64,000 nt of DNA from positions 1 to 64,000 of the forward strand of contig JASANE010012605.1 of NCBI GenBank assembly GCA_030248225.1, written 5' to 3'. Position numbers and translations under genes: made by a program. Below are positions 1 to 17,436 of the stretch, piece by piece (position 1 is the stretch's first letter; every line of letters starts with the position of its first letter). The notes under the pieces were generated by a model. The model was not told the origin of the DNA. It did no database searches and saw nothing but the letters and a program-made list of their open reading frames with translations. The DNA is from Trileptium ribeirensis. Lineage: Eukaryota; Nematoda; Enoplea; Enoplida; Thoracostomopsidae.

Positions 1-187
1 TGATAGTGGCAGTATCGCTACGGGGAGTATGCAAGAGATGAGTTCGGATCCACTGGGCGAGAAACGTTCGTGGAGACCCTATTGAAGGGACGCCCTTGAT
101 GCGCCCGGGGCAAATTTAGGCGACTCCACTGACACGTTGGCCGACGTTTCCAGCGATATTTTGGGACCCGTCGAAGAGGTGCCCAGT

Positions 188-2926
188 ATGCCCTCGGGTA
201 ATTCGGGCAACCCAAATGAAATAGGTGTGATTACTGAGGAATCCGTCGAAGGGAAACCATGCATGTCCCCGGGTAATTTGGAGGACGCAGTGGGCATAAC
301 TAGTGAGGACTCGGACGTGTGTATGGGACATGAAAACTTACTTAACTTTACACGAGAATCTACCAACGAACGAGTACATCGACTTGACGAACAACTATTG
401 GACATGTCTGGACTTTGTCTTCCCGACAATATGCCGATCGAACTTGGACGAGTAAGAGAAATGACGGACGAGGAACGCAACCGAATTCTTGGGACTGACA
501 CATTGTTCACTATGTCTACGGACCATACCGAGACCGCAGCTTATCAATTCCCTCGCATCGAATTGACTGAGGATGCGCTTAATGAGTCAGCTGAGGGACT
601 CATCCCAATTAACTTTAGGGCCAGTGAAATCAATGCTGACTTTGGACAACCGCTGGCGTTGCAACCGCAAGCTCTCTTTTATAGGAGAGTCACCATCGTA
701 ATGGAACAACTGAATAATTTGAGCCGACTTTTTGAGCTTCGATTTGAGGTTAGTACACGCCCCGCCTTGCAACGAGACGCTGCCATGCTGAGCAGTATAT
801 TAGGCATGGCCTCCCCAATTGGGCACTGCATGACCGGAATGTATCTTGGTCCCGTAACTCTTGCTTCGTTGGAGTCTTTCATCGACCTGGTGGGTCAATG
901 CGTGAGTGGCCACCCGCTCCAACAGGTTATTGAGAGAGAATTCGAGGTGGAGTTGAGTAGGGATCCGGTATGTCGACAGTGCCAGGAGTGCCACACAAGA
1001 GATTCGCGGGACATCGGCTTAAGTTGTTACTTTTACGGTCAACGAGGAAGGTGGACTTATGACGGTACTTTGAGTACCGCGTGCGCGTCCATCCTCCCGG
1101 ATGGATATGTTGCCCCTCACTGGCCTTTCTACGTTGGAATTCAATCAGCCAGAATGCAGAAGACTTTCCGCGAGGCGAATCTCGAGTTACATGACCTCTT
1201 GTGCGAGGCGCCTTATTTGATCGAATTTATTTACCAAAACCAAGATACACGCGGTGTTCCGATCAACTCCTTTGTCGACCATGCAATGGACAATATGGAA
1301 TTTGACGACGAAACTCACAGACTTGCTCGACTAGTACTACTCAGTGCTCGCTTGAGACTATTGCGACGCCCCGACATTGCTGCACTGCTTGAGACGGAGG
1401 GAAACACATCAGTCGGACTAAAGGTAGGCAGGGACCGCCTAATCTCGGAACTATGCTTGTTTCCGGACGATGCCACCAACTATTCCGTTCCGAATTTGGA
1501 CAAACAACTAAACACGGCGCTAGCCGCTTACCTCGACTCATCCGAAGACGAGTCGGAGGATAGCTCTGATAGCGATTCAGCCCAGCAAGAAAGCGTAACT
1601 GAATCGAGTGACACAGAAATGAGTGACGAGGAAATTAAAAGCGACATTACGGGACACATCGCAAATAAAGAGACCAGGAGGGAACTCAATCGAACCGAGA
1701 TACGATCCCCTTCACCAAGTCTTAATAATGGCTTCGGCCATCCATCAGGTATGTGGAGGGTCTGTACAGTCCTATTATTACTTTGGCTCTCAGCGCTCAG
1801 TTCTACACGCGCAACACTTTCGCCATTCAGTGACTCAATCTCGCGCTTAGGTGCTTTTGTCAATAGACAAGTAGGAGTGGTCATCGAGCCACAGGGCTTG
1901 GTGGTCACCTCTGACCAGACCACGCATCTGCCAGTGGTATTGCAGTTATCACTTCGCGATTGGGAACGCAAGTCCGATCCTTACGTGAGTAAGTTCTGCC
2001 CGCCTTATGAAGCAAACGGAAAATGTCGCGCCGACTGCTGCCGAAAAGTCAACTGCACCGAATATCCACAGCTACATGAGACCCTAAGAGCTTTGGAAAG
2101 TGAGTTGGACGACGCCTACCATGGCGTACTGGACACCAATTATTATTCGCTGCTTGTGCATTCTTTTTGCGTTGCGAACGAGCAATTGTGTGATCTCACA
2201 CATAAAAGGGAGAAACGCTTTGCCAGCTTAATCGCCGCCGCTGCCGGCGCTGTCTCAGGTTTCTTGGGACTGGGAATGGCTTTCTCCAATGGAGTACATA
2301 TTAACAATGTGCGCCAACAGGTAACTGTCCTCGAGAAATTCATGCGCGAGACCAACGACGTCTCTTTTCGGAACACTAAAGCCATAAGGCAACTCACCCG
2401 AGCAAACGAGGATATTTACGCCTTTCTACACCATAGTATGCAAGAAGTAGTCTCTATGATTGAGCAGGTTAGGTGTGCCGACCAGAAAGAAATCGCACAC
2501 GTACACCACCAGTTGATAGATCACATCCTTCGAGCCAATATGCGCTCGTCGGTACAAGCTATAATGGAGTCCATGTTGAACGGCGAATTATCCCCTGCCG
2601 TTATCGATGTCGTCATGTTACGACGGTTATTTTCCATGGATCCACGCATTTCCAAAACTATCCTTATGCGCGAGCCTAGCCTCGCCTATCAGTTTGGTCG
2701 CGTCATGCCTGTGAGTGTGGATTTGACTGCTTTTCGCTTTGGATTCATTTTGCAACTACCATTGCCGATGCGCAATGATGTACGTCCGTATTTTCGGATC
2801 TATAACACCGGTTGGAACGCGCCTGCCACGCTAACGCAGCTGAGATTGCCGCTCCCTCAATACGCCGCCCGCTTGAAGAGGCACGTTCGCTTCGAATCGC
2901 TCAATCTGAGGAGCTTGCAAGTATAG
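188..2926 (+). CDS. Retroelement ORF1: unassigned N-terminal (Gag-position) region fused to an envelope-like glycoprotein segment
   Basis: The frame is open from 86, but the first ATG is at 188, and the true 5' end may lie upstream of the window. The first ~460 codons match no family I recognise. They are helix-rich, lack a CCHC zinc knuckle and contain a short cysteine cluster (CRQCQEC). An acidic Ser/Asp/Glu tract follows at about 1525-1650. From the in-frame ATG at 1751 the protein changes character: a hydrophobic leader (LLLLWLSALS) typical of a signal peptide, a Cys-rich stretch, a furin-type REKR site (codons 2207-2218), then an Ala/Gly-rich hydrophobic segment (2219 to about 2290) like a fusion peptide, and a heptad-like region. 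This is the layout of a class-I-like viral envelope protein. The frame stops at 2926 before any membrane anchor; an anchor-like helix appears at the start of the next ORF. The envelope is therefore interrupted in this copy. Gag identity of the N-terminal part is only positional. Confidence 0.75.
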   Translation: MPSGNSGNPNEIGVITEESVEGKPCMSPGNLEDAVGITSEDSDVCMGHENLLNFTRESTNERVHRLDEQLLDMSGLCLPDNMPIELGRVREMTDEERNRILGTDTLFTMSTDHTETAAYQFPRIELTEDALNESAEGLIPINFRASEINADFGQPLALQPQALFYRRVTIVMEQLNNLSRLFELRFEVSTRPALQRDAAMLSSILGMASPIGHCMTGMYLGPVTLASLESFIDLVGQCVSGHPLQQVIEREFEVELSRDPVCRQCQECHTRDSRDIGLSCYFYGQRGRWTYDGTLSTACASILPDGYVAPHWPFYVGIQSARMQKTFREANLELHDLLCEAPYLIEFIYQNQDTRGVPINSFVDHAMDNMEFDDETHRLARLVLLSARLRLLRRPDIAALLETEGNTSVGLKVGRDRLISELCLFPDDATNYSVPNLDKQLNTALAAYLDSSEDESEDSSDSDSAQQESVTESSDTEMSDEEIKSDITGHIANKETRRELNRTEIRSPSPSLNNGFGHPSGMWRVCTVLLLLWLSALSSTRATLSPFSDSISRLGAFVNRQVGVVIEPQGLVVTSDQTTHLPVVLQLSLRDWERKSDPYVSKFCPPYEANGKCRADCCRKVNCTEYPQLHETLRALESELDDAYHGVLDTNYYSLLVHSFCVANEQLCDLTHKREKRFASLIAAAAGAVSGFLGLGMAFSNGVHINNVRQQVTVLEKFMRETNDVSFRNTKAIRQLTRANEDIYAFLHHSMQEVVSMIEQVRCADQKEIAHVHHQLIDHILRANMRSSVQAIMESMLNGELSPAVIDVVMLRRLFSMDPRISKTILMREPSLAYQFGRVMPVSVDLTAFRFGFILQLPLPMRNDVRPYFRIYNTGWNAPATLTQLRLPLPQYAARLKRHVRFESLNLRSLQV
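1746..1754 (+). promoter_or_regulatory. Splice-donor-like sequence just before the envelope start codon
   Basis: CAG followed by GTATGT matches the eukaryotic 5' splice-site consensus. It lies immediately before the in-frame ATG (1751) that begins the signal-peptide-like leader. Splicing here would remove the envelope segment from the ORF1 message. Acceptor-like ATTGCAG sites exist at 2997-3003 and TATTGCAG at 10606-10613. This is inference from consensus only. Confidence 0.35.
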
Positions 2927-3164
2927 ACCAGGAATCGCTTCCTCTGCGAACCAGATGCGCCAGAAAATCACAACACACTAACTGTTAGAATGGATTATTG
3001 CAGGTGAACATGTGCCTGAGACCACTAAACATACATGCAGCAACCGCTCGCTAATAGGTCCACTTACCAACGACACGTCTGTAACACACAACTATACAAG
3101 GAGTATTACAAGGAGTATTGATCGGCAACTAGTGAACCTGAGAGGTCATACTGACAAAATCGTA
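2927..3164 (+). other. Broken inter-ORF stretch within the envelope region
   Basis: Short open segments lie in two other frames between the ORF1 stop and the downstream Pol frame. The frame used by Pol is open from 2991 to 3170. It then meets stops at 3171, 3198, 3240 and 3285. An acceptor-like ATTGCAG ends at 3003. The pattern fits either an envelope gene broken by small indels or an intron-like segment. I cannot decide between them without transcripts. Confidence 0.5.
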
Positions 3165-3318
3165 GACAACTAGCTCACGTTACAATGGGTAAGTCGATAA
3201 AAATCCCGCCGAATGGAGTGTTATGGTTTCCAACATATATGATAAATCGCAGGACAACTAGCTCACGTTACAATGGGAAGTCGATAAAGTCCCGCCGAAT
3301 GGAGGTTATGGTTTCCAC
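3165..3318 (+). repeat. Imperfect tandem duplication (period 88 bp) in the envelope region
   Basis: GACAACTAGCTCACGTTACA recurs at 3165 and 3253. Each copy goes on through a CCCGCCGAATGGA block and a TTATGGTTTCCA block. The copies differ by several small indels (for example GGGTAAG versus GGGAAG). Stops in the Pol frame lie inside both copies, so the duplication contributes to the break between ORF1 and Pol. Confidence 0.85.
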
Positions 3319-6300
3319 ACGGAAACTACACTCAGTTGGTTATAGGATCAATAGTGCTCACTAGCATGTTGAAACCCGAGAAGATTACAATAAAATTCGG
3401 ACCGAATATCACTATTGACCGGCTATCCGGTATCAAACTAAGACCTTTGACATGGGACTCACTTGACAATGCCAAAGCTATAAATTTACGGGTTGCACAG
3501 ATAGCTAAAGATCAAGTGCGTAGGGTGGTTAATCTCCCCGCTGTGGAGTACACCGGATTCCTGCCCTACTTCCTTATTACCGTCGTTGTGGGACTGATCA
3601 GTTTAATCTATTTTATGACCAAATGCAAGCTCCCACCTAAGTACGGATATTACATTCCCCGATGGTTCCCATGTCGTGGACGACTAATCAGGACCGATAG
3701 TAAGCCTAGAAAAGTGATTCGATGGACTAGAGCGAGACCCCAAATACCGAGTGCCCCACCCGAGGAAGACGACTTTCCTCATACAGACAGGACTTCGCCG
3801 ACCGAGGTCACGGTTGGGCCTTCGGGAACGCCGCGCGTGTCCGTAGCGTCCAGCCGTGCCCCACGTCGTTCGAACCGACTACTAACATCACGTAACTCTT
3901 CCGAGGAGGAACTTGTTTTCATCGAAGACGATGAACTATTTGTCGCTCCCACTCGCGACTTACGTCGTGGACCTCGCCAAGGCGTGTTCACTAGACAATT
4001 AAACACAATGAACGCAGGCAATACTCCACTACTTATTAACGCAACAATACTTGGTACCCCAGTTATGACACTTGTAGATACTGGAGCCGACGTCTCAATC
4101 ATGTCCCAAGCCCTGGCTGCCCGTTTGGGATTAGTTCCCCGTGACACGACCACTACCCGCATAGTATCAGCTACACAACAAGAACTAACCATCAGCGGAG
4201 TAGTAAAAGCACCGATCACAATAGGATCGCTAAGTACACCGTGCGACTTTCAGGTAACAACTGACACACCGTACGAATGCATTTTAGGAACCGATTTCAT
4301 GGCATTACTACCATACGTCGCCATAAACTTCAAGGACCGTTGCCTGGATCTATCTAACGGGACTGAGAACTGCTCAGCACCTTTCGCCGACCAAGGGGAT
4401 TACCGACCCCCGGTTATCAACGTGGTAACCAGAAAATACACTCAAGTACCACCAAACACCGAGTTATTCATCAACGCCATTCCGGAAATCACCCAACCAC
4501 CGACAGGTCAAGCCTTATTTGTGCCTGACCCCTTTATTAGGGACGTTGCCATCGCCCACTCCCTGGTACTTACTGGCCAACGCATGATACCAATAGCACT
4601 AATGAACTTTGGGAATTTTCCCGTCGCCATACACGCTGGACAGACAATAGGACATATTGAGATGCTTGACGACAATGAGGTCGAGTTCTTGTATGACAGT
4701 AACAAGCGCCTGCTACAGCTGGATCCTCCGAGACGCACTAAGCAATGCAACAATATTGGAGTTACCCGAGACAACGTTGTACAAATTATAAGTGAACAAA
4801 AGAAGACAATTGACACCGAACGATCCATACAAGTCTTGAGCAAAATTGACTTTGGACAAACGACCCTAAACCCTTTCGAACTCAAGCAATTGAAAACGAC
4901 TATCTCTGAAAACGCAGACATATTTAGTGTACACCCGTTCGATCTAGGCAGATGTGGTGTGCACCAACACAGAATAGTCACGGGAGACGCAAGGCCCATC
5001 AAACAGGTACCCTATCGTCTAGCACATTCATTAAGGGAACCCTTGCGTGAGGAATTAAACAATATGGTAGAAGCAGGTCTTATAACGCCATCAGATTCAC
5101 CTTGGGGTTCTCCCATAGTGTACGTCACCAAAAGTGATGGTACATTACGGTTATGTGTCGACTTTCGTAAGCTCAACGTAGTGGCAGAACGAGACTTATA
5201 TCCACTACCCCGTATAGACGACATCTTGGGATGTCTCCGAAACACTAAGTTCATGTCTAGTCTAGATCTTAACAAAGGCTTCTGGCAACTGGAACTGGAC
5301 CCTGAGACCAAGGAGAAAACCTCCTTCGTTACTGTCCATGGACAGTATGAATACAACGTTCTGCCATTCGGACTGAATTCCTCACCAGGCGCCTTTCAAA
5401 GGTGCATGTCAATCATATTAAAGGGTCTAGAATGGGAACGATGCCTTATCTATATAGACGACATATTGGTCTTCTCACCCACGTTTGAACAACACTTGGC
5501 CGACTTAATAACGGTATTTGACAGGTTCCGTAAGGCCAATCTTAAACTAAAACCTTCAAAATGCCAATTCGGACAGAAACAATTAAAATACCTTGGACAT
5601 ATTATCAGTTCAGAGGGAGTTAAGCCCGACCCCGAGAAAACCGCTGCGATAGACAATTACAAACGACCAGAAACTCTCAAACAGTTACAAAGCTTTCTAG
5701 GACTTGTAGGATACTATCACAAATTCATACCACACTACTCTGAAATTTGTGAACCGCTCAACGCACTCCGACGTAAGGACAGCGAATTCAAATGGACACC
5801 GCAATGCGAGGAAGCATTCGGAAAACTGCGTAAGGCATTGGTACAAGAACCACTTCTCATATACCCGGACTTTTCTAAACCTTTCATACTCCAAACGGAC
5901 GCTTCAGGATATGCCCTAGGAGCCGTGCTTTCACAAAAGACCGACAAAGGGACACTACCTATCGCCTACGCGAGTAAATCACTTGTGGACTATCAACGAC
6001 GATACCCCGCCATAGAGACTGAGGCTCTCGCCATTAGATGGGCTGCCTTACACTTTCGACACTACTTACTTGGACACGAATTTCACGTCGAAACTGACCA
6101 TAAGCCACTTAAAGCACTATTCGAGAGACCGCCGCGAAACTCGCGACTAGCTCAATGGCGTAACGAATTACTGATGGAATTCGGTGGTTTTAACATCGAA
6201 TATCGACCAGGCAAGGCAAATGCCAACGCAGACGGACTTTCACGTGATCCCCGACATGATGTGGAATTTTCTTATTCGTCGGACGAGGCTGAACAGGACG

Positions 6301-9300
6301 AACAGGACCATCCTCGAATGGTTGCTGTGGCTGTTAAAGGACAGGATCGCGGTAAAGGCAAAGCTCCAGCTAAACCACCCCGACGATTTCCCACCGAAGA
6401 AATTTGGAAACGACTTACGCGACAACTCTTAGGACTTCCACCGGACGCTCCTGTTAACCTACCACCCGAGTACGTTAGAGAACGTTTCTATCGTATGTTC
6501 GGAGGATCCGATCATGACCCCCTACCGGATCCGACACGTTTCATCTTCTGCGGAGACATAGACGACCCCTGGCCCGAAGGAGTTGAGATCCCCGGGAGAC
6601 GGACGACTGCCCCAGGACCGCCAGAGTCCACTGATAAACCGACCCACACACCATCTTCTGCACCCGAACCACCCGCCGAACCTCCGCAACCCCAGGAACC
6701 CCCAACTGCTCCGACACCGCCTGCTCCAATCGCGGCGAGTGAAAGCTCAACTCGCGCCACGGCTGGTACACCTGAACCCGCTAGACCACAGACGCTACCG
6801 ACAACTGCTAGACAAAGATATGGAGGCTTACCCGAAGTAGAGGAATTTGACACATTAATTAAGGTTGCTTACGCATGTGGACCACGAATACAATTACAAC
6901 GCCCTGAACAAGTCTATGACACTGGAGAACACATATACTTACCACACTTTCAACAATACGAAGGAAGGAACCTTCTCAATTATTTACCCTACATTCAACG
7001 CAGAGATAAACAATTTGGTCCTATTTGGTGGTATTTACACACACGACAGTCGCCTGCCGATGAAAGGGCAGCGACCGCCCTCAAACTAGAAGCCCACCAT
7101 TATAGGCTCTGCCCCGACACTGCTATTCTATACTTGCATCCCATTATGCCAAATGACCACCGACCCAAACTATGCGTACCTAGACTACTCATTCGACAGA
7201 TACTCAAACACGAACACGACACATTATTTGGTGGACATCCAGGTAGAGATCGGCTACTAAGCAAACTCAAGCAATTCTACTATTGGGAAACCATGGGTAA
7301 GGACGTGGACGAATATGTTAAGCGATGTGTACTCTGCCAACGATCACGCAACCTACCCCAAAACGTTCGAGCCGCGCTCGGAGAAAACCCGTTGGCTAGT
7401 GCACCCATGCATCGAATGTTTGTCGACATACTGGACACTCGGGTGCTATCCCGAAACGGAAACAGGTACGTAATTGCCTTTATCGACCAGTTCACAAAAC
7501 TAGTAATCGCTGCTGCGTTGCCGGACCAAACCGCCAAAAGCGTCGCCAAGGTCTTCGTCGAAGACGTGGTGTGTCGCTACGGCGCACCCGAGGAGCTAGT
7601 CTCAGACCGAGGCGGATGTTTCGTCTCCGAAGTAATGGAAGCCTTGTGCGCCAGACTACATACATTTAAGCGCGAAACGCTCAGTTACAACCCGAAGGCA
7701 AATGGAGAAATCGAACGTTTTAACCGTACACTACTATTCCTCCTAAGAGTAGCATTACCTGAAAAGGACCATACTACATGGGACGAAGTCCTGCCGTATT
7801 GCATCATGTCCTACAATTCAGCAGTACACGCTTCCACGCACTATCCACCATTCATGCTCATGCACGGATTCCAACCCCGAGTACCGGGTGGAATTGAAAC
7901 ACAAACTGATTGGGGACGCTACCCCGGAGCAGAAGCATACCGCGCTAATGTACAACGGTGGTTAGCTACCATTAGGGATCGAGCCTATCGATCCATGCAA
8001 TCCGCTCGGGAATACAGAAAACGCTATTACAATCGCAAAATCAAGGTCCCTGACTACCGCGTTAATGACCATGTATGGGTCTATCGATACTATACTACAC
8101 CAGGTCTATCACGCAAATTAGAACGCCGATGGTGTGGACCATACCAGATTACCAAAATAATGCTACCTTGCATTTGTGTTAAGCTCCCCGGACAACCTAA
8201 CGCGTCCGATCATGTGGTCCACATCAATCGTACCAAGCCATGCTATCGCCCGCTAAGCAGCTTCCCTGACATGGCTGATTTGCTCAAAGCCGTCCCTCCC
8301 GCATACATTGAGGCTGCACTACAGGAACCCGGAGAAACGATCCTCGCTGACAAGTATTTCGCAAGAGAATTACAGGCTGCAGACCCAGAAGCAGTAGATC
8401 GGTTGCGCCAGGAGATTGATGGTACATCCGACGTCGCTAGCATAGAGATTGGAGAACCTAACTTAGAATACACGCAAGCCCAGGCAGACATCCACCGCGC
8501 CGCAGTAGAACGGCTAACCATTCAAGCCCAAGACTCCTCCGGAGCCCCGCAACAAAATAGGCTTCCCCTCTGTGACCCTGACAGAACCCCGGACACCGAA
8601 TGGCCCGCTATATCACAGGAACTCGCAACCCAGGACTCCGCTAAGTTACCTTACGCACTGGATAAACCACCAGGTACTTTCTCGCCTGAGTATGGACAAC
8701 ACACCGCCCCAGTAACCCTACGAGAGCAGGAACGAGCCGTTCGGACTGATGAGGCTACAAGGCCTCTAAAGGTAAAACGATTAGACCCCGAACGCGCACT
8801 GCGACCATTCAATGCAAACGACCTCGGTCTTGTGGAATTACTCGCTTCACAGGACCCGGACGAAGACTCGCCTCACACTCCAGAACAAGCAACATCCCCA
8901 ACGTCAGCCATCGAGCATGCAGTCCAAACTTCGCCCCTCACGCCTGTAAAACACCGAGCCGCAATCGCCACTCAAACATCTCGCAGTCCTCAGACACAAC
9001 ACTTAATGACCGAAACAGACCAGCCATTAACACCATACCACACCTATTATGAGCATTCAGCGTCTTACGAACAACCCTATTCCATACCTCGTCAGGCATA
9101 TTCCGCCCCACCTACACCACTTCCACACACTCCCCTGATGCCACAAGGATTCGAAGCCACCATAGAGGACTACGTTCCAGATGAATGGCTCACACCATTT
9201 CACACCCCTCCAAGGCCACAACCCGCACAATCCGTCCCAGCAACCAGCCAACCTCCACTGGAACCCGCGCCAACACCAAAACCTAAGCCTAAACCACGAC

Positions 9301-10520
9301 GAAAACCAACTAAGGTTCCCGCGCCGACTAGTGAACAAGCATCATCTATAAGTTCAGAAACCACCTCATCGGAAACCGCCGATTTTCCGACACCGCCCCA
9401 ACGGTGGATAATTCCACCCCTATTATCACCCTTGCAGGAACGGGGAACCAAAGATCCACAGGTACCATCCTTTGGTCGATGGACCACCCGAAGACAAAAT
9501 GAACTAGCACAATGGGAATGGGAAATGCAGGAGATAAGAAGGAAAAGAGAGGAAGCCGCCCGTGCCCGAGGAGAAATACAGGATGCAACTGAATTAATGG
9601 AGTACTTAAGAGGATCCCCTATACAATACATCTCCTCGGAAGACCAAGTAGCTGCCGACGGGATTGTAGAAGAATTTATTGAGAGTTTAGCTCGACAACG
9701 AGAGGCAAGTAAACAACGTCGACCTTCCGAGTCTTCGGAAGGCGGTCGACCGAAACGATTACGACCACGGACTGTAGACAAGGACAATGAGACAATATCA
9801 ACCATTGGCGAATCAACCAAAGGCTCCTCTACCGGGAGGAAGGGAAGAGCGCCGCCGCGTAGCGCTCCCTCCACCCTTAAGGGAGTTCTAACACAACCAT
9901 CACGCGCCAAACCACGTAGACAAACCCCAGCTAGAGCCCAATCACAAGTTAGTTGGGAAGACGAAGAGGACGAGGTACCTCTTAGTCAACTTTTACCGGG
10001 ACCCCGACGAAGGCCCCACTTTGAACTCGATCCTCCAACTGAGGAAAGCGAGGGATCTCCTGAGATGGGACCCTCTGCGCCCGAGGTTAAGGAGAGGGAA
10101 GAACCCCCTCAACCTACTCGCCGACAACCACATAGGCAAGCCAGGGACCGTTGTCGTTGGTATGAAGAATACATACCATACGGAGAAGAAGCCCGAGTCG
10201 TAATACCACGTTTGGACACCCGACGATTGGAACCTAAAATTACGACACCAGCTCGACGGACTATACCCCTCGCTCCACCGACTCGACATCGTGACCCTGT
10301 TATGCCGATGGATTATCCATCTGGTAGTGCTCGTGCACGGCACGACATGTTTGAACCTTTTAGGGACATCTTTGATGAACAGGACATCGAGGACATGTTA
10401 TCCGCACATCCGGACTTGGAACCCGACGAGGACAGTGGACAAAGACAATTACGACCTGAAGATATCGGACTAGAAGTGGTCCGACCTCCGAGACAACCGC
10501 CTCGCGAGCGACGGTTGTAA
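3288..10520 (+). CDS. Gypsy-type Pol polyprotein with an N-terminal envelope-like membrane segment and a long disordered tail
   Basis: The frame is open from 3288 with no ATG before 3366, so expression probably needs splicing, frameshift or readthrough. Numbering from 3336, the order is as follows. A hydrophobic helix sits at about residues 70-92 (FLITVVVGLISLIYF), followed by a basic tail with a PSAP motif (3747-3758). The aspartic protease has its active site (VDTGAD) with Asp about 248. The reverse transcriptase has YIDD at 706-709. RNase H has its first Asp at about 855. A Pro-rich linker follows. The integrase has an HHCC zinc motif from about 1292, catalytic D1364, D1424 and E1460 (35 residues between the last two), and a GPY-like block near 1600. 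About 750 residues rich in Pro, Glu, Arg and Ser end the protein. All catalytic residues are present, so the enzyme part looks intact. Membrane-anchor sequence directly ahead of protease is abnormal for Ty3/gypsy elements, where env normally lies 3' of pol. No zinc knuckle is seen before the protease. Confidence 0.93.
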   Translation, partial: SPAEWRLWFPHGNYTQLVIGSIVLTSMLKPEKITIKFGPNITIDRLSGIKLRPLTWDSLDNAKAINLRVAQIAKDQVRRVVNLPAVEYTGFLPYFLITVVVGLISLIYFMTKCKLPPKYGYYIPRWFPCRGRLIRTDSKPRKVIRWTRARPQIPSAPPEEDDFPHTDRTSPTEVTVGPSGTPRVSVASSRAPRRSNRLLTSRNSSEEELVFIEDDELFVAPTRDLRRGPRQGVFTRQLNTMNAGNTPLLINATILGTPVMTLVDTGADVSIMSQALAARLGLVPRDTTTTRIVSATQQELTISGVVKAPITIGSLSTPCDFQVTTDTPYECILGTDFMALLPYVAINFKDRCLDLSNGTENCSAPFADQGDYRPPVINVVTRKYTQVPPNTELFINAIPEITQPPTGQALFVPDPFIRDVAIAHSLVLTGQRMIPIALMNFGNFPVAIHAGQTIGHIEMLDDNEVEFLYDSNKRLLQLDPPRRTKQCNNIGVTRDNVVQIISEQKKTIDTERSIQVLSKIDFGQTTLNPFELKQLKTTISENADIFSVHPFDLGRCGVHQHRIVTGDARPIKQVPYRLAHSLREPLREELNNMVEAGLITPSDSPWGSPIVYVTKSDGTLRLCVDFRKLNVVAERDLYPLPRIDDILGCLRNTKFMSSLDLNKGFWQLELDPETKEKTSFVTVHGQYEYNVLPFGLNSSPGAFQRCMSIILKGLEWERCLIYIDDILVFSPTFEQHLADLITVFDRFRKANLKLKPSKCQFGQKQLKYLGHIISSEGVKPDPEKTAAIDNYKRPETLKQLQSFLGLVGYYHKFIPHYSEICEPLNALRRKDSEFKWTPQCEEAFGKLRKALVQEPLLIYPDFSKPFILQTDASGYALGAVLSQKTDKGTLPIAYASKSLVDYQRRYPAIETEALAIRWAALHFRHYLLGHEFHVETDHKPLKALFERPPRNSRLAQWRNELLMEFGGFNIEYRPGKANANADGLSRDPRHDVEFSYSSDEAEQDEQDHPRMVAVAVKGQDRGKGKAPAKPPRRFPTEEIWKRLTRQLLGLPPDAPVNLPPEYVRERFYRMFGGSDHDPLPDPTRFIFCGDIDDPWPEGVEIPGRRTTAPGPPESTDKPTHTPSSAPEPPAEPPQPQEPPTAPTPPAPIAASESSTRATAGTPEPARPQTLPTTARQRYGGLPEVEEFDTLIKVAYACGPRIQLQRPEQVYDTGEHIYLPHFQQYEGRNLLNYLPYIQRRDKQFGPIWWYLHTRQSPADERAATALKLEAHHYRLCPDTAILYLHPIMPNDHRPKLCVPRLLIRQILKHEHDTLFGGHPGRDRLLSKLKQFYYWETMGKDVDEYVKRCVLCQRSRNLPQNVRAALGENPLASAPMHRMFVDILDTRVLSRNGNRYVIAFIDQFTKLVIAAALPDQTAKSVAKVFVEDVVCRYGAPEELVSDRGGCFVSEVMEALCARLHTFKRETLSYNPKANGEIERFNRTLLFLLRVALPEKDHTTWDEVLPYCIMSYNSAVHASTHYPPFMLMHGFQPRVPGGIETQTDWGRYPGAEAYRANVQRWLATIRDRAYRSMQSAREYRKRYYNRKIKVPDYRVNDHVWVYRYYTTPGLSRKLERRWCGPYQITKIMLPCICVKLPGQPNASDHVVHINRTKPCYRPLSSFPDMADLLKAVPPAYIEAALQEPGETILADKYFARELQAADPEAVDRLRQEIDGTSDVASIEIGEPNLEYTQAQADIHRAAVERLTIQAQDSSGAPQQNRLPLCDPDRTPDTEWPAISQELATQDSAKLPYALDKPPGTFSPEYGQHTAPVTLREQERAVRTDEATRPLKVKRLDPERALRPFNANDLGLVELLASQDPDEDSPHTPEQATSPTSAIEHAVQTSPLTPVKHRAAIATQTSRSPQTQHLMTETDQPLTPYHTYYEHSASYEQPYSIPRQAYSAPPTPLPHTPLMPQGFEATIEDYVPDEWLTPFHTPPRPQPAQSVPATSQPPLEPAPTPKPKPKPRRKPTKVPAPTSEQASSISSETTSSETADFPTPPQRWIIPPLLSPLQERGTKDPQVPSFGRWTTRRQNELAQWEWEMQEIRRKREEAARARGEIQDATELMEYLRGSPIQYISSEDQVAADGIVEEFIESLARQREASKQRRPSESSEGGRPKRLRPRTVDKDNETISTIGESTKGSSTGRKGRAPPRSAPSTLKGVLTQPSRAKPRRQTPARAQSQVSWEDEEDEVPLSQLLPGPRRRPHFELDPPTEESEGSPEMGPSAPEVKEREEPPQPTRRQPHRQARDRCRWYEEYIPYGEEARVVIPRLDTRRLEPKITTPARRTIPLAPPTRHRDPVMPMDYPSGSARARHDMFEPFRDIFDEQDIEDMLSAHPDLEPDEDSGQRQLRPEDIGLEVVRPPRQPPRERRL

Positions 10521-10643
10521 CGTTTAAATCACTCGAGAAACACCCCAGAAAACTCGAGCTCCCGCCACCAAACTCCCTCAAGAGCCGCCACTAATGGCGA
10601 TGAATACTATTGCAGGAACAACCAATTCAAAGGACTCAACGAC
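10518..10643 (+). promoter_or_regulatory. In-frame UAA and open 41-codon linker between Pol and the NADAR ORF, with an acceptor-like site
   Basis: Pol ends with TAA at 10518-10520. The same frame is then open through 10643 and enters the ATG of the next ORF. One stop codon is thus all that separates Pol from the NADAR protein. TACTATTGCAG, ending at 10613, resembles a 3' splice acceptor. The downstream ORF could be made by stop readthrough, by splicing, or the stop may be a recent nonsense change. Confidence 0.6.
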
Positions 10644-11777
10644 ATGGAACAAATTCCACAACCTCGAGTGCCGTACTACACTATCAATTATGATGCGCCG
10701 ATGGAAACGTTCCTGTCCAAAGGCACACATTGGCCAGAACTCTCCAACATGGCTCCGTTAGGCCAAACCGTCACCCAATACCCCATCGAATACGCCTCGA
10801 CGGAGCAAGGCTACCAGCTCCTCGTCACCTATTTATTCGACGAGGAGCAAGCAAAACAAGACATTTCAGACCTGAAACTGGGAGCTCGAGACGTCAAGGC
10901 CATCTCCCGACGAAACAAACAAAAGTTCCTCGACCCCGAAACAACCGAGCGCCTCCGCCCAGTACTCCCTCACCTTATGCGGACGGTGCTCCTGGAAAAA
11001 TTCAAAATACCTCGATTCAGGGACGCCCTGCTAGCCACCGGATTTGCCCAATTGCTCGAGGCCAATAGATCCGATTCCTTTTGGGGAATCGGCCTAGGGC
11101 CGGACGACATCAAGTTCGGCAAACGACCGCGACGCTGCCACAATGTCATGGGCCGCCTATTGGAGGAGGTTCGATCCTTCCTCCGTCACGACGTCGCCTC
11201 CTGGCCGACGGTTTTGATTTTGGGCGACTCCCTAGCAGCGCCTTTGGTCAACATGGCCGCTTCGCAGGGGTGGTTCGCTATGGCGTGGCCAGGAGCCACC
11301 ATGCAATTCCTGGTCCGGCTGGCAACGTGCATCGCCACGCCACAAACCAAGACAATAATGGTCCTTGGCGGCTATAAAGCGGCCCTACGAACCAAGCCGC
11401 ATGAAGGCCGTTTGCTGGACACGCCCAGTAAGGTCATGCGTCGAGTGCGCCGATATATATGCTCATTCGACTACCTACTCGGTGATGGAGCCCGAGCCGT
11501 CATCGCCCCGCCCCCGCCACACTGGGACCTCGGACAGGACAATACGGTCGAATGGCACGACGAATTTACCAAAATATTTCAAGACATTAAATGGCAATTC
11601 CCCGACAGGATGCAGAAGTCGTCGATGTCAGACTACCCACCCGAACTAGAAGAATCGGGCGCATGGGAAACCCTTACCGACGGCGACGAAGTTGCGGAGC
11701 CTCGCGTAACCGAACCCTACATAGGGTGCTTTCGTAAATGGGTTCAACTGAACTTAGTATCTGACAGTTGGGCTTAA
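10644..11777 (+). CDS. NADAR-domain plus SGNH/GDSL-like domain protein, last ORF of the gypsy element
   Basis: A real ATG opens 377 residues. Residues ~22-180 match the NADAR (YbiA-like, DUF1768) pattern as I know it: a start like FLS, then STEQGYQ with a conserved Glu (E54), ISRRNKQKF, LLEKF, LLATG (129-133), and FWGIG (146-150). Family members cleave N-glycosidic bonds in riboflavin intermediates or ADP-ribose/NAD derivatives. Residues ~188-320 look like an SGNH hydrolase: block I ILGDSL (Ser196), block II PGA, and a block III position reading GGYKA, where the usual Asn is missing, then a P-rich turn before HWD. Esterase-type SGNH domains are known from CR1-like retroelement ORF1 proteins. 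The ORF lies 123 bp after Pol, in the same frame and orientation and with similar codon use, so I take it as part of the element. Its role (NAD/ADP-ribose metabolism, counter-defence, RNA handling) is unknown. Confidence 0.82.
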   Translation: MEQIPQPRVPYYTINYDAPMETFLSKGTHWPELSNMAPLGQTVTQYPIEYASTEQGYQLLVTYLFDEEQAKQDISDLKLGARDVKAISRRNKQKFLDPETTERLRPVLPHLMRTVLLEKFKIPRFRDALLATGFAQLLEANRSDSFWGIGLGPDDIKFGKRPRRCHNVMGRLLEEVRSFLRHDVASWPTVLILGDSLAAPLVNMAASQGWFAMAWPGATMQFLVRLATCIATPQTKTIMVLGGYKAALRTKPHEGRLLDTPSKVMRRVRRYICSFDYLLGDGARAVIAPPPPHWDLGQDNTVEWHDEFTKIFQDIKWQFPDRMQKSSMSDYPPELEESGAWETLTDGDEVAEPRVTEPYIGCFRKWVQLNLVSDSWA

Positions 11778-12596
11778 CAATTTAGGAAGAAATTCCGACA
11801 ACACCACATGGACACTGGCTATTCGGAAAATTTTCTTGTCAATACGAACTACCAAACGCACTTGAGGTGAACCCAAAACCAATGTATTATAACGATATTA
11901 TATTTGTATAATCAGATGTAGGAACAACAGTATAAATGCCGTATTTAACCACCTATTTTAATCCTGTATCCGTTGCGTAATGTATATCTGTCTATGCATA
12001 ACTTTTACCATGGCACCTTGGCTAAATCAAACAAGTTGGATCATCTCGGAAAATTCTTTGAAAACTTAGTGCAAAGTCCTTTTCGTTCCCTAAAAAATAT
12101 AAGAGGAGGACTTTTTCGGACCCAGGAATTCTCAAATAGAAACTTTCAAAAATTATGTATGGCTAAGACCAACGATGGTGATAAGACATCTCGACGATAA
12201 ATATAAATATAAATTAAATTAGGAAACCGGAATTTTCAAGTATCATATCTCATCAGGTTATCTGTATATGGACTAATTTATTATTGGGTCGTAGAGTATA
12301 GGTTATTTTTCAGAACCAGGCACGATCCTTTTTGGAGACCCCATTATAGGCGAAAATTTTCATTATCTAGACAACAGAGGAAATTGCTTCCAACCCGAGT
12401 AATTAAGTCCGAAAATTTCCATTTAAAAATATAAGAGATGTAACAGGCTCGTTCCGACCCGTTACGCTTATTTTTCATGACTTCGGCGCCAAAATGGCCC
12501 GAACGCGCCTTAAATCGAACCAGACACAGTTACTGGAACTAAGTTTTCATGTGGTGCAGGGTGCCATGGTTTGTTAACTATATTATTCTGCTTGCT
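11778..12596 (+). other. Non-coding 3' region of the gypsy element
   Basis: This AT-rich sequence follows the last ORF. It presumably holds the 3' untranslated region and part of the LTR. A purine-rich run (AAGAGGAGGA, 12104-12113) could be a polypurine tract. No second LTR is available in the window for comparison, so no boundary is claimed. Confidence 0.4.
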
Positions 12597-12664
12597 AACC
12601 TTGCTTATTAACATTGATTGCCTATTTTGTAACCTTGCTTATTAACATTCATTGCCTATCCTGT
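12597..12664 (+). repeat. Two tandem 34-bp copies
   Basis: AACCTTGCTTATTAACATTG at 12597 is repeated with few changes at 12631. The unit length is 34 bp. Confidence 0.85.
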
Positions 12665-13690
12665 TTGCTATAACCCATTGTTTCTCTGTATGCGTTATCA
12701 TTGCATGTATTATTTCGTGTCTTGGGTTTTCCCGGAACCGGATGGACGGAATGCGTGGTATAAGGTGAAAGTGTAACTTGACCGGAGTTTGACTTGGACT
12801 GAAAAGTAGGAGCTGTTGTAGGCTCTGAGCATGTCTTCGGAACTCGACGGCCCGCCGCAACACACACAAGAAAATTCAAAATTTAGACCGTCCGGGAATA
12901 GGAGGCCTCTGACGATTTAAGGGGTCGGGAAGTAATCAAAATCAAGACTCTCAATTTTACCTGGTTCAAAGTAAACCATAGCTTAATGGTTGCAGAAGTA
13001 AGCTGAAACAAGTGGGTTACGGTAGTTTCCGATTATTCGGAAATAACGGACCTCGGGCCTGTTTATCGGCCCGTAACCGTCCAACGGTTCAGATTTACCG
13101 GAAATGCCCCGAGTGCTTTTCAGTAGAGAATTTTCAGGGCTCTCGAACGAGCCCAAGACATCGCAAATCGCTGGAGTATTTCACGAGATATCCTGGGGAC
13201 AAATAGGTGAACATTCAATCAACAGCCAATACTTACGCTAGGTTCGGCTGGTGACCATGGTCCCGAGTGGACCTGATATAGGCATATATGGATATATAGT
13301 TATGTATATATGTAGATATGTGTGTGCTGCCTGATCCTCGTGTCTCGGTATGTCTATTTTCCCGCCCCCACCGTATCAGGACTTTATTTTTATAGCATCC
13401 GTTGACGCCCAAAATGGCCTGACCACCATACTAACAACTGGTTTTTCTGGTTACCCTTGGATCGGTAAGTGAAGGTACGCGTGTTTCCAAGTAGCCTATC
13501 CATCTAGGCATCTGACGAGGCCATGCGGGTCTCGATCCGACCAGTCATCCTGCCACTAGGTCACTTATTTCCCTATATTGTATCGTACCACGGAAATTCA
13601 ACATCAAATCCCGCTTGTTCTGTACCAACTCCGTATTTGACCCCCGGCCCTAAACGTGCTCCTGCGACCCCTCATTTTATTCGTCTGCTC
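12665..13690 (+). other. Non-coding stretch, probable LTR/3' UTR sequence
   Basis: No convincing coding sequence is present. A short AT dinucleotide-like run (GGATATATAGTTATGTATATATG) lies near 13285-13315. The rest is unremarkable. Confidence 0.4.
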
Positions 13691-13700
13691 CTGGCGAGCA

Positions 13701-14110
13701 CAACGATATCCGGCGGGTCTTTGTCCGCCTTCGCGTTAGCCTCTTATGACCGATAATGTGCCCCCCCAATTTGGCATACCGACTGCAAGTGGGTACAGAC
13801 CGACCGAAAATTTAACCCCAACTCAAAGGTAGGCATAATGCCCCTCATTGCATTCGTCGCGTCGAGACATCTTCAACGATGCCCGGCGGGTCTACATCCG
13901 TCGCCCCGTTAACCCGGGACGGCCGAAAACGCGCCCCCACTTTTTGCCGACACTCTCTTTAACAGTCTTCAACAGTCGTGATTTTAGTGCCCCTCTACCC
14001 GCTGCCGTTAAAGTAGGGAAAACACCCCTCGTTTGAATCGCCTTTCCAAGGCGAGTTCAACGATGTCCGGCGGGCGTCGCTCCGCCCAACCGTTAGAGCG
14101 GGAGAGCCCG
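13701..14110 (+). repeat. Three diverged tandem repeats of about 175-185 bp
   Basis: The core CAACGAT..CCGGCGGG, followed by a GTCCGCC-like tail, occurs at 13701, 13874 and 14058. The flanking text (TTCGTC.. before; CCGTTA.. after) is also shared. The units are clearly related but well diverged, like subrepeats in an LTR or 3' UTR. Confidence 0.75.
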
Positions 14111-14363
14111 CTGAAACTCCGTATACTAATCTATGTCGGAACCCAAAATTGGGTCCCGACCCGCCACTGTGACTAACCCCCTCGTGTTTGGTATCATTCA
14201 GCCCCGTTTTTCGTCCTGGGACCGAATTTCGCCCCAGCCCCTCGAAATTCCCTCGGGAACCCCCTGTCCCGACTTCCTTCCCATGCCCTTCCTTTTTCGT
14301 CTTCTTTTCTTGTCCACTCTCTCTAACCGACTTCTTTTGGTCGGTTGTCGTCGTTGCTGTCGC

Positions 14364-14432
14364 CATGTGTGTGTGTGTATGTGTGTGTGTTGCTGTTGTT
14401 GTTGTTGTTGTTGTTGTTGTAAAAAAAAAAAA
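14364..14432 (+). repeat. Microsatellite cluster (GT)n, (TTG)n and poly-A
   Basis: A GTGTGTGT run passes into about nine TTG/GTT repeats and ends in twelve A residues at 14432. The tract abuts the left inverted repeat exactly. It may be the tail of a retroelement. Confidence 0.95.
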
Positions 14433-15941
14433 TAGTTCGTTCTCTGGGAAATTTTACGGTGGTGGCAAAAGAGTAATGGATAAAGTTTCTCGGTGGCTTG
14501 CTCATAACTCAGTTGCATTGGAGTACTGTACTGCCATTTCCAACTGTCCCATAAGTATTCCTGTCAAAGTTGACTAACAACATCAACGTGACGTGTCAAT
14601 TTTATAATTTGCGTCAACGTGATCTTGAACGACCATGGTGTTGTTCAAAATGGTGGTTTTGATACTGATTGTAGGAACTACCTGCGGAGAGTAGCTGTAT
14701 GGAGTAAAAAATCAAATATGCGGTTGAACATGGCATGTAGGAGGGCTTAAAATACTGAACTTATTTAGCTGTACAGGCGAAGCCCAGTAACACGTTCAAA
14801 AATTAGCTCGTCGGCATGGAATAGCTGGAATCGGAAACAGCAATCGCAACTGTTAATTTTAATTGCAGCTGTAACTATCCATTATAATAGTTGTTATAGG
14901 CTCATTTGTATCTTACCATTATTATTAAGCATGTAAAAACTTACAGCACGTGCCAGAAATGTGAGCTGCGAGCCTGCTGTAAAATCGAACGATCAGTGTT
15001 AATTAAATGTATTTGTTAAATTTGAACCTATCATTGCTGCTCGAGTAGTACTGTTTTGAAATTGAGCCTATTTTCATAAATTTGCCGGTTTACTGCTTTT
15101 ATTATTTTGTTTGGGACTATTCGTGAATAAAGATATCGATAAATTATATAAGTATATCGATATCGGTCTGTGGTATGATGCATTTGAGATCTTATTTTTA
15201 TGAAGTTATGTATAAGTTTATTTTATATCTGAGGTTTTCGACCAATCAGTGGTGGCAAAGTGTGTGGCGTGCTTTTCTCGTGAAGTTAACAGTCGAGGGC
15301 TTACGAAAACAACCAACAACTAGTAGTGCAACATACTATAGTGCTATAGAAAGGGAGTAGGCGAACAGAGATTGCTCTTGCTGTAGAGATTTAAAACAAT
15401 TGAGAAATTTTGGCGTTTTTCAATTCAGGTGCATGCAGAGGAATATTATGGGTCGATATTATTTTTTGGGCGCGCAATAAAAGCAACTCTATTTTTAGCT
15501 TCAAATACGGAAGTTTCAAGAGTGCACAACGTAACAAATCTCACTTGAAATTGTACTTCTTCCGGAAATTGATGGTTAATAAATAAAGTAGAATCTCGTT
15601 TTTGAAATGGGAAAAATTTCTTGCTTTCTTTCTCTTGACAATTTCTTGTTTTGTCCGTTAGTATAAATCACAACAAATGTTCGGGTGGACGGATTTTGAT
15701 AAGTTTTTTGTTCGTTTGCAAAAGTGATGTTTAGTTGAATACCAAGAAGTCGGACGCCATCTTCCCGGACAAAATATCCAAAATGGTTTTAAGGGTGCTT
15801 TGCCAAATCTGGTCGTGGTTGTGCCTATGTTCTGCAGCTTATATCTTGCGCAGAGTCGGTACACTGAAAAACAGAGTATAAAAGAACATATCGGATAACT
15901 GTTATCATGAATTTGACAATATCGTTGTCCTAAATATACTA
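14433..15941 (+). repeat. Left arm of a large inverted repeat (about 1.5 kb)
   Basis: The arm starts TAGTTCGTTCTCTGGG and ends ..GTCCTAAATATACTA. Its reverse complement makes up 17786-19299 with only scattered substitutions and small indels. The outermost bases are TA at both ends, which would fit a TA target duplication. No transposase-like ORF is present; a 61-codon ORF seen in both arms is an incidental repeat. A VDAC exon lies between the arms. Confidence 0.93.
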
Positions 15942-17331
15942 AATGATCATGCGCGGCTTTTGCACTCCAAACAGGATGCAGCATAATATCGCCATTTTTG
16001 ACCCTATCGGAAAAATTTAAACCGTTTTAAACTATAACTTGACATCTCTGGAAGAGAATGTACAAGAAATACATTCTTTCTGCGTTACAATGCTTACCAA
16101 TATGACGAACACCAAACAAAATCATTCCATCAACGAACAAGTCTTAAAAATTACAAAACGCTCTAAAAATTGCTAACAAAGATCTTCCGATCCTATCTGC
16201 CGACCATTGTACGAGAAAACGGCAGCCCAAAATGTTGTAATACGATTGCAAAAAAACAGTAGTTTAACTAGTTTTAGAAGTTTTTAATATAAAATTTCAT
16301 ACGACTGTCTATATGTACAATTTTTACTAACTATGCCCGTGCTTAATATTAATTTCTGGGCTTACGACTCAAAACGAAAATTTTACTACCTTAGTGAAAG
16401 CCCGATATTACTAAATAAAAAATATGACTCGAATAATTTGTAAACTCGTTAAAAACAGGTGGAGGCTGAAATGCAAACGCTCTACCGTATTACCAAAATC
16501 GAACTTCTAACATTATTATTACTATTAAATTAGTTTGGTAACTAACAAAGAATAAACAGTACCCTGAGGCCACGTTGATTGGAAAAGCAATACATATCAC
16601 AACAAACACACAATGATCAACGTTTGAGAAGGTAATTTATTATCTTTTGTGAAGTTAAAAAATAGTGTCCAACAATATACAGGCGAGCACCATACCCACT
16701 AATGGGTGCGCACATTATTTATTAAGTCTCACGCCCAGTCAAAATTGTTCAAATAGGTCAATGTTGACTTACAGTCTAAACGTCTAAACCGTTGTGAAAA
16801 AAGTATTGAAATTCTTCTGTACCACGGTCTATTTGGTTTCGACCTTAAATGCGGACCGGTATTTATCCATTTTTATAGCAAACCGACTCTATGAAAACAC
16901 CATGTTGTTTACTTAATAGAGTGGCTTCTTAAGTAGCGGGAGGGGTTCAGATACTTTGACATTCAATAGGTACTTCCTTGTACGACTAGACAATTACCAA
17001 ATTTTTTGATGGGACAAGAAATATGCAAATTTTTCCATATTTTCGCCTAAAACCATGCATTTCGCAATGCGGAGCTAAAAATTACTACAATTTCCCCTTT
17101 TTATGACCCCAAAATTATAGCAATCAGTTGCCAAATACATTTTTCATGTCTTTTGGAAGTTACGGCACTTTATGGTCGCAATGGTGGACCCCCAGATGAT
17201 ACGGTATGTTCCGTCACTCCAATTCCAAACAGCAGGGCGTCCCAAGTCAAGCCCCCAAATAAAACTTTGATAGTTTTAGAGAAGCCAGAGATACTATCGT
17301 ATGTTCATTAATACGCAATCAAACGGGTTAC
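15942..17331. other. Spacer between inverted repeats, VDAC intron sequence
   Basis: The stretch is AT-rich, with no coding sequence recognised on either strand. By position it is the intron downstream of the VDAC exon at 17332-17436. Confidence 0.5.
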
Positions 17332-17436
17332 CCCACTACTGTTGCGGCTGTCAGCGTTTTGCTGCTTAAGTCAAGCACAGCGTCAGTCATGATTTTGTCG
17401 ACACAGTATTCGGCTTTAGCTTTGCCAGAATGTTTG
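17332..17436 (-). CDS. VDAC (mitochondrial porin) internal exon, downstream of the 20129-20249 exon
   Basis: On the minus strand a CAG acceptor precedes 17436 and a GT donor follows 17332. The 105-bp exon reads KHSGKAKAEY.. in the frame required by the preceding exon: that exon ends AA, and this one supplies the third base. The SGK-x-K motif followed by alternating beta-strand sequence matches the VDAC region just after the TLTEKWNT exon. The exon lies between the two arms of the inverted repeat. The next exon, expected to carry the conserved EGW block, was not found below it. Confidence 0.75.

What the first reader, a model, noticed from the sequence alone, without database searches (positions are those of the whole stretch)
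10644..11777. NADAR plus SGNH-like protein as the terminal gene of a gypsy-type retrotransposon
The ORF has the NADAR signature (STEQGYQ with Glu, LLATG, FWGIG) joined to a GDSL-type domain (ILGDSL, PGA). It lies collinear with and in the same frame as an intact Pol. NADAR proteins act on N-glycosidic bonds of NAD/ADP-ribose derivatives, a currency used in anti-viral and anti-transposon immunity. A retroelement carrying such an enzyme could be counteracting NAD- or ADP-ribose-based defence. The fusion with a second hydrolase-like domain adds to the oddity. I do not know of this architecture as standard for gypsy elements.
Basis: partly seen in the sequence, partly recalled or inferred. Interest (0 to 1): 0.9.

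Follow-up and report, generated by a model that had tools for sequence, protein, structure and literature searches.

The report
ADP-ribose-enzyme-like gene in giant retrotransposon
A giant virus-like jumping element, present in this genome in more than a hundred sampled copies, carries a well-preserved extra gene related to enzymes that remove ADP-ribose tags, but with a key active-site residue replaced; the gene likely helps the element handle a chemical mark on its own DNA or RNA.

Summary
The ORF at 10644-11777 is real, contains a true NADAR domain (Pfam 62.9 bits, cut-off 35.1), and belongs to the retroelement. The genome search scored 109 copies of 2,874 candidates (88-100% identical), 101 of 109 without a stop. 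In 52 of 109 the element's integrase lies 3.2-3.8 kb upstream on the same strand. The ORF is under purifying selection (omega 0.05 NADAR, 0.07 C-terminal domain, 30 loci); the spacer after Pol is non-coding, so the gene is no Pol read-through. The host is a Burro-like giant gypsy: Gag, Env and Pol in one frame of about 4,700 codons; in the one copy measured, LTRs of about 6.7 kb and about 31 kb in all. NADAR in retroelements is published; I found no report of this fusion or host. Other elements here carry NADAR too.

The parts
137..2926 (+). Env-bearing part of the giant Gag-Env-Pol frame (this copy): signal-like stretch from about 1751, furin-like KREKR from 2204 followed by an Ala/Gly-rich fusion-peptide-like stretch. 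Gag lies upstream, off the contig.
   Evidence: the piece 2201-2800 was found in 150 scored places of 1,731 candidates, with open frames up to 4,749 aa. The Env label is by motif and position: no Pfam family over its cut-off (three weak matches, E 0.16-0.21).
2927..3335 (+). Interrupted junction in this copy: frame change, stops and a near-duplicate stretch; described only.
   Evidence: three-frame translation, read by eye.
3336..10520 (+). Env membrane anchor (about 3558) continuing in frame into protease, RT, RNase H, integrase and a long proline-rich tail
   Evidence: gag-asp_proteas 2.5e-13, RVT_1 1.5e-32, RT_RNaseH_2 3.7e-36, Integrase_H2C2 5.6e-20, rve 1e-11; tail piece 8136-10517: 0 families at E<=1. 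Coordinates.
10521..10643 (+). Non-coding spacer between Pol stop and ATG
   Evidence: omega 0.62 against 0.13 (Pol tail) and 0.05 (NADAR); length changes not a multiple of 3 in 6 of 29 loci that reach across it.
10609..10615 (+). Conserved ATTGCAG, possible 3' splice site of a message for the downstream ORF (untested)
   Evidence: TATTGCAGG in 33 of 36 loci of both subfamilies, in a spacer that is otherwise only patchily alike; one of the 3 misses (L057) does not reach this far.
10644..11777 (+). NADAR plus GDSL-motif two-domain ORF, 377 aa
10731..11186 (+). NADAR domain, residues 30-181; E54, E139, D144, W147 kept, usual Lys is V61
11187..11633 (+). C-terminal domain with SGNH-like motifs (GDS 194-196, PGA 216-218, LGG 241-243); inferred SGNH-like, probably not a hydrolase
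   Evidence: Motifs and omega 0.070; no SGNH profile hit; Ser and His lost in 5 of 5 of subfamily B.
11634..11774 (+). Variable C-terminal tail of the ORF
   Evidence: omega 0.191; 14 of 47 residues invariant.
12437..14420 (+). Start and first 2 kb of the 3' LTR of the element (begins near TGTAACAGG)
   Evidence: window 12437-12568 matches the 5' flank of copy C15157; 12875-14420 matches both of its flanks (91% and 93%).

Best explanation
The ORF is a selected second gene of a multicopy Burro-like giant gypsy retroelement: a NADAR domain joined to a domain that is likely SGNH-like, probably translated from its own spliced message and predicted to recognise, and perhaps cleave, a ribose-linked mark on the element's RNA, cDNA or nucleoprotein. 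Shown: element membership, position, copy number, purifying selection on both domains, the absence of the usual lysine, and the loss of Ser and His of the C-terminal domain in a sister subfamily. Inferred: the altered NADAR pocket keeps the residues that in published structures hold the distal ribose (Glu, Glu, with Asp and Trp nearby) while the phosphate contact has changed, so the ligand is likely a ribosyl adduct other than the standard guanine-ADP-ribose, or the same adduct bound without fast cleavage; the C-terminal domain likely works as a binding scaffold rather than a hydrolase. I give about 0.97 to the architecture and about 0.4 to this mechanism.
For: NADAR by profile and fold. 109 scored copies of 2,874 candidates, 101 of 109 without a stop; 29 of 30 fetched loci carry Pol-tail sequence directly upstream and the 30th (L057) starts at a contig edge; integrase 3,226-3,809 bp upstream in 52 of 109; ORF present in 6 of 6 loci looked at in a second subfamily. 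Omega 0.050 NADAR and 0.070 C-terminal domain among 30 loci, no stop or gap in any; 0.055-0.089 and 0.068-0.116 between subfamilies (5 comparisons). E54, E139, D144, W147 in 35 of 35, Lys absent in 35 of 35 against K in 23 of 23 homologues. TATTGCAGG in 33 of 36 spacers. One more ORF with GDSL (E 1.4e-7) and a weak NADAR match (E 1.4e-4, 22.6 bits, below the cut-off) stands behind a BEL/Pao-type integrase end in the same genome, which supports the reading of the C-terminal domain.
Against: No substrate, transcript or protein evidence. No profile links the C-terminal domain to SGNH; hhalign of the C-terminal alignment with three recognisable GDSL domains of this genome scored 14.8, within the 12.2-15.2 of 10 column shuffles; with the whole-ORF profile it scored 19.9, equal to the best of 12 shuffles, though over 244 columns against 10-65. 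Loss of Lys, and of the Trp that 22 of 23 homologues have at column 104, could mean that no ribosyl ligand is bound at all. The 23 homologues were found with a profile seeded by Lys-bearing NADARs, which may favour Lys. The splice site is a motif only; no donor was sought.
Confidence: 0.42

Rival explanations
1. An active counter-defence enzyme: the NADAR domain strips ADP-ribose from element nucleic acid and so defeats a host ADP-ribosylating defence.
For: NADAR is carried by several unrelated mobile-element types here, some with Lys kept; [quoted passage not shown] PMC11125620, passages).
Against: The lysine essential in the published enzyme is absent in 35 of 35 copies; no DarT candidate in the genome (introns ignored).
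Confidence: 0.2
2. A non-catalytic nucleoprotein cofactor: both domains have become binding folds that package or traffic element RNA, with no role for NAD or ADP-ribose; comparable to SGNH ORFs of other retroelements, to the noncatalytic SGNH-like domain of Oskar (recalled), and to the nematode NADAR protein SNA-3 in RNA processing.
For: Lys and SGNH catalytic residues not kept; strong selection all the same; the NADAR protein SNA-3 acts in trans-splicing (PMC9303266, passages); a role of SGNH in RNP assembly is proposed for non-LTR elements (PMC5408684, passages).
Against: E54, E139, D144 and W147 are fixed in 35 of 35, more than a mere scaffold would seem to need.
Confidence: 0.28
3. A passenger host gene captured once and drifting, or a host gene that merely lies next to the element.
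For: None found beyond the lack of known function.
Against: 109 scored copies, 52 with the integrase at nearly the same distance, and purifying selection; 6 of 6 loci of a second subfamily have it too.
Confidence: 0.02

Closest known systems
Burro giant gypsy elements of planarians (PMC6431247, section 7 read)
   Same: Gypsy PR-RT-RH-IN; Env in frame between Gag and Pol in one giant ORF (4,873 aa there, up to 4,749 here); total over 30 kb with LTRs; accessory domains.
   Different: Accessory domains named there are BIR, BCL2-like, MATH, ankyrin, SUMO-like and a dUTPase; NADAR is not named. Here no dUTPase was found in the pieces scanned and the accessory protein is a separate ORF after Pol.
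NADAR-bearing Gypsy lineage of Ectocarpus and NADAR ORF1 of oyster Tx1 LINEs (PMC12477816, passages)
   Same: YbiA-type NADAR carried by a retrotransposon; a role in processing the element's RNA is suggested there.
   Different: [quoted passage not shown] the passages read mention no GDSL fusion, no Env and no loss of the lysine.
ORF3 GDSL esterases of bdelloid LTR retrotransposons (Vesta), PMC5408684, passages
   Same: GDSL/SGNH-type extra ORF3 in an LTR element.
   Different: There the invariant residues are reported intact and no NADAR is mentioned; here Asn is Tyr, and Ser and His are lost in subfamily B.
DarT1-NADAR toxin-antitoxin NADARs (PMC11543638, section 12 and passages)
   Same: Same fold family and most pocket residues.
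   Different: No essential Lys, no DarT candidate found, carried by a eukaryotic retroelement.

Membership tests
NADAR superfamily (PF08719) | Profile score over the curated cut-off | tested here: met
   62.9 bits against 35.1; two rows of subfamily B 60.3 and 62.1.
NADAR superfamily (PF08719) | NADAR fold | tested here: met
   Foldseek of the model: 8bau E 3.1e-6, TM (target) 0.70; 2b3w E 1.1e-4.
Catalytically competent NADAR | Glu of SxEQ, late Glu, Asp and Trp (P. nicotianae E43, E125, D130, W133) | tested here: met
   E54, E139, D144, W147 in 35 of 35 copies; L068, with an odd insert, left out. Equivalence to the P. nicotianae numbers is from my reading of the alignments.
Catalytically competent NADAR | Lys seven residues after the first Glu (K50/K95) | tested here: not met
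   V 34, I 1 of 35; K in 23 of 23 homologues.
DarT1-associated antitoxin NADAR | DarT toxin gene present | tested here: not met
   0 candidates for PF14487 in six frames; control rang in 1 of 14 genomes; spliced genes could be missed.
SGNH/GDSL hydrolase | Profile match | tested here: not met
   No GDSL family for the window protein at E<=1 or its C-terminal piece at E<=10 (NCBIfam 0 families); in PDB 12 sequences at E<=10, best E 0.23, none named as an SGNH enzyme.
SGNH/GDSL hydrolase | Catalytic Ser, Gly, Asn, His | tested here: not met
   Subfamily A: Ser and Gly 30 of 30, Asn position Tyr 30 of 30, His 30 of 30; subfamily B: Gly 5 of 5, Tyr 5 of 5, Ser to Asn 5 of 5, His to Ala/Thr 5 of 5. 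The match of these positions to SGNH blocks is by motif.
Ty3/gypsy LTR retroelement | PR-RT-RH-IN order with LTRs | tested here: met
   domains; LTR pair in one copy, C15157, 93% over 4.7 kb and about 80% over 1.4 kb.
Burro elements | Env in frame between Gag and Pol in one giant ORF | tested here: met
   16 of 150 integrase hits lie in frames of at least 4,700 aa; env and integrase hits on the same contigs share frame lengths such as 4705, 4711, 4749; Gag CCHC at its start in the one copy read there. Env identity by motif only.
Burro elements | dUTPase between PR and RT; BIR, BCL2, MATH domains | tested here: not met
   None in the pieces scanned: first 1,231 aa of the frame in L071 and window 137-2923 and 3336-10517; two different copies; 2927-3335 not scanned.
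Burro elements | Common RT ancestry with Burro | not testable with these tools
   No Burro sequence at hand.

The most novel reading that the evidence does not exclude
Four kinds of mobile element in one genome (an Env-bearing giant gypsy, a helicase-bearing gypsy, a BEL/Pao-type element and Maverick-like DNA elements) have each taken up NADAR, in two retroelement lineages as a NADAR-SGNH fusion placed after Pol. This would point to an undiscovered animal defence that ADP-ribosylates nucleic acids, with elements carrying erasers or, as here, a reshaped reader.
Probability: 0.22. Interest if true: 0.92.

Novelty: new variant of a known kind. Interest (0 to 1): 0.68.

Why it matters
It gives a high-copy retroelement family whose accessory gene is a NADAR-type protein under strong selection, in two subfamilies that share the altered NADAR pocket but differ in the GDSL residues. 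Physiological roles of NADARs found across eukaryotes are stated to be unclear (PMC11125620, passage). Repeated uptake by unrelated elements in one genome makes the question whether animals mark foreign nucleic acid with ADP-ribose directly testable.

Tried and rejected
Read-through of the Pol stop to make a Pol-NADAR fusion: rejected, because the spacer shows omega 0.62 and frame-breaking length changes in 6 of 29 loci. Host gene next to the element: rejected. Second active hydrolase: rejected for the family as a whole. Homologue searches of the full ORF and of residues 182-340 in the large protein collection scored nothing at E<=0.001 and E<=1; viral contigs gave no relative; 22 phage records matched, the 20 listed only over the NADAR part at 27-40% identity. 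AlphaFold on the single sequence was useless (pLDDT 36); with 23 homologues the NADAR part was good and the C-terminal domain was not. A tree of 32 NADARs puts the element's NADAR on a branch of length 3 with no supported nearest kin, so its source is unknown. The hhalign tests of the C-terminal domain were not significant. Taxon: a COX1-like nuclear fragment and an SL1 search whose controls were silent did not settle it; the rRNA search (RF01960) did not complete. That the host is an animal is inferred, not shown. A weak Pfam OAS1_C match in 4 of 6 C-terminal rows (best E 0.0022; 13.1 bits against a cut-off of 19.9 in L065) was set aside. L064 gave nothing of use.

Full report
The ORF. Window 10644-11777 (+) encodes 377 residues. 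Residues 30-181 match Pfam NADAR at 62.9 bits, cut-off 35.1; PDB 8bau, a NADAR, matches at E 7.7e-5. A model made with 23 database homologues is confident over the NADAR part and its only PDB matches at E<=0.001 are the NADAR 8bau and YbiA 2b3w. The rest carries GDSL- and PGA-type motifs but no SGNH profile match.

It belongs to the element. A search of the window's own genome (687 Mb, 20,229 contigs) scored 109 of 2,874 candidates; the 109 are 88-100% identical and 101 have no stop (the tool says counts of repeats are lower bounds). In 30 fetched loci (L034 is the window itself), 29 carry Pol-tail sequence directly upstream as far as the locus reaches, and the other (L057) begins at a contig edge just before the ORF. 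The integrase piece was found in 150 scored of 4,638 candidates. Comparing the two lists, 52 of 109 ORF copies have an integrase on the same strand 3,226-3,809 bp upstream, most at 3,246 as in the window; 36 more are + strand copies within 3.3 kb of a contig start; 21 are unlinked in these lists, of which L048, L050, L051 and L057 are cut by contig ends. I then looked downstream of six 97-98% identical integrase copies that were not linked to the first list: 6 of 6 have the ORF, at 69-79% identity, as a subfamily B. One of the six, L068, has a low-complexity insert in the NADAR part and is left out of residue counts.

Selection. Over 30 loci, pooled pairwise omega is 0.134 for the Pol tail, 0.623 for the 41-codon spacer, 0.168 for residues 1-29, 0.050 for NADAR, 0.070 for 182-330 and 0.191 for the tail; no ORF copy of the 30 has a stop or gap and the ATG is kept in 30 of 30. 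Pairs are not independent, so these are descriptive. Between subfamilies omega is 0.055-0.089 and 0.068-0.116 in five comparisons; synonymous sites are near saturation there. The spacer is thus non-coding, although its frame is open in many copies. It holds TATTGCAGG in 33 of 36 loci of both subfamilies, ending at 10615, which I read as a likely 3' splice site; this is untested and no donor was sought.

The host element. Gag with a CCHC knuckle opens the frame in the one copy read there (C6937). In 16 of 150 integrase hits the open frame reaches at least 4,700 aa. An Env piece with furin-like and fusion-peptide-like stretches was found in 150 scored of 1,731 candidates, and by my reading of the two lists at least 30 contigs give the same frame length for the Env and the integrase hit, e.g. 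4,705, 4,711, 4,749. So Env lies in frame between Gag and Pol. In copy C15157 the 3' flank matches 521-7008 of the fetched 5' piece, 93% over 4.7 kb and about 80% over the last 1.4 kb; the window's LTR start (12437) aligns at 313 of that piece, so the LTR is about 6.7 kb. The two copies of one LTR block lie 24.3 kb apart with the ORF, integrase and Env hits between them, giving about 31 kb in all. These are traits of Burro, a giant gypsy of planarians for which in-frame Env between Gag and Pol was reported as the first case (PMC6431247, section 7). The dUTPase and apoptosis-type domains of Burro were not found in what I scanned and no Burro sequence was at hand, so I say Burro-like only. In the window copy Env is interrupted at 2927-3335.

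The active site. In published NADARs a Lys seven residues after the SxE glutamate is essential for efficient guanine-ADP-ribose hydrolysis and is thought to coordinate phosphate (PMC11543638, section 12; Arg keeps activity in vitro). Here that residue is V in 34 and I in 1 of 35 copies (30 of A, 5 of B), while E54, E139, D144 and W147 are fixed. In 23 of 23 database homologues it is K, and W stands in 22 of 23 at the column where the window has L104; these homologues were found with a profile whose other rows bear Lys, which may favour it. By eye the two other GDSL ORFs read in full, C6260 and C2957, also lack a Lys there. The pocket is therefore reshaped and held so by selection. The C-terminal domain keeps Ser 30 of 30 and His 30 of 30 in A but has Asn and Ala/Thr in 5 of 5 of B, and Tyr instead of the block III Asn in 35 of 35. 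A conserved esterase is unlikely.

NADAR in other elements of the genome. A NADAR search gave 2,317 candidates; 150 were scored, all over the cut-off. Of the 30 fetched, 28 have neighbours of a Maverick-like element (A32-type ATPase, TBP, or the ORFs beside NADAR; L012 by one 29% match only) and 2 (L017, L029) follow an SF1 helicase ORF. The 10 kb stretch L031 has integrase with chromodomain, A32 ATPase, NADAR and TBP; no polymerase B was found in the ORFs scanned, so Maverick membership is not shown. L032 has a gypsy-type integrase, a 1,151-aa helicase ORF and NADAR; 2 of 2 further copies fetched have the integrase at the same distance. A search for GDSL domains gave 36 matches among 107 candidates, none at a listed place of our ORF. 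Of three fetched, the C6260 ORF has NADAR E 1.4e-4 (22.6 bits, below the cut-off 35.1) and GDSL E 1.4e-7 (32.7 bits, cut-off 32.9) and stands directly behind a DUF5641 domain, E 4.2e-15, which I recall as the BEL/Pao integrase end. The C2957 ORF shows GDSL and no NADAR match; L079 was not scanned. So a NADAR-GDSL ORF after Pol occurs in a second retroelement type, seen once. hhalign between the families was not significant.

Mechanism. Selection on an altered but largely kept ribose pocket, joined to a domain that is conserved but does not keep its catalytic residues, fits best a protein that recognises (and perhaps slowly cleaves) a ribosyl mark on element nucleic acid. An active eraser against host ADP-ribosylation is weaker because of the missing Lys and because no DarT candidate was found. 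A ligand-free RNA-binding cofactor is a serious rival.

Literature. [quoted passage not shown] GDSL ORF3s are known from bdelloid LTR elements (PMC5408684, passages). Searches NADAR+retrotransposon (7 papers), NADAR domain+transposable element (30, 1 paper), NADAR/YbiA/retroelements (31, 20 of 34 listed), SGNH hydrolase+retrotransposon+gypsy, Maverick+nematode+NADAR (38, 3), NADAR+Polinton (100, none) and NADAR+planarian (137, 6 of 7 listed) showed me no paper on a NADAR-SGNH fusion or on NADAR in Burro-like or Maverick-like elements; most were seen as listings only, and only open-licence PMC papers are in that library.

Noticed in passing
window 14513-19221: Nearly perfect inverted repeats (four arm pairs, 96-100% complementary, about 1.4 kb per side) right after the part of the 3' LTR that aligns; probably another mobile element inserted in the LTR.
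   Followed up: partly
G000:C520 (L031), L001-L028: Maverick-like elements with NADAR that keeps the catalytic Lys (L004, L016), plus a TBP-type gene beside it; a second group (L001, L025) has Tyr or Asn in place of the late Glu and Phe for the Trp.
   Followed up: partly
G000:C7014 (L032), C7321 (L072), C19225 (L073): Another gypsy-type element with a UPF1-like SF1 helicase ORF followed by a NADAR ORF after the integrase.
   Followed up: partly
G000:C6260:16100-18126 (L080, L082, L083): BEL/Pao-type integrase end directly followed by an ORF with a weak NADAR match and a GDSL domain.
   Followed up: partly
window, about 3747 in the 3336-10520 ORF: A PSAPP motif, like a viral late-domain motif (recalled), follows the Env membrane anchor, before the protease.
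   Followed up: no
window 24781-27110: 300-nt blocks repeated identically 1.4 kb apart.
   Followed up: no
window 33385-33891 (-) and 63055-63489 (-): ORFs, probably retroelement remnants, that carry a PHD finger.
   Followed up: no
L068: Proline-rich low-complexity stretch replaces part of NADAR while the frame stays open; may be an assembly error.
   Followed up: no
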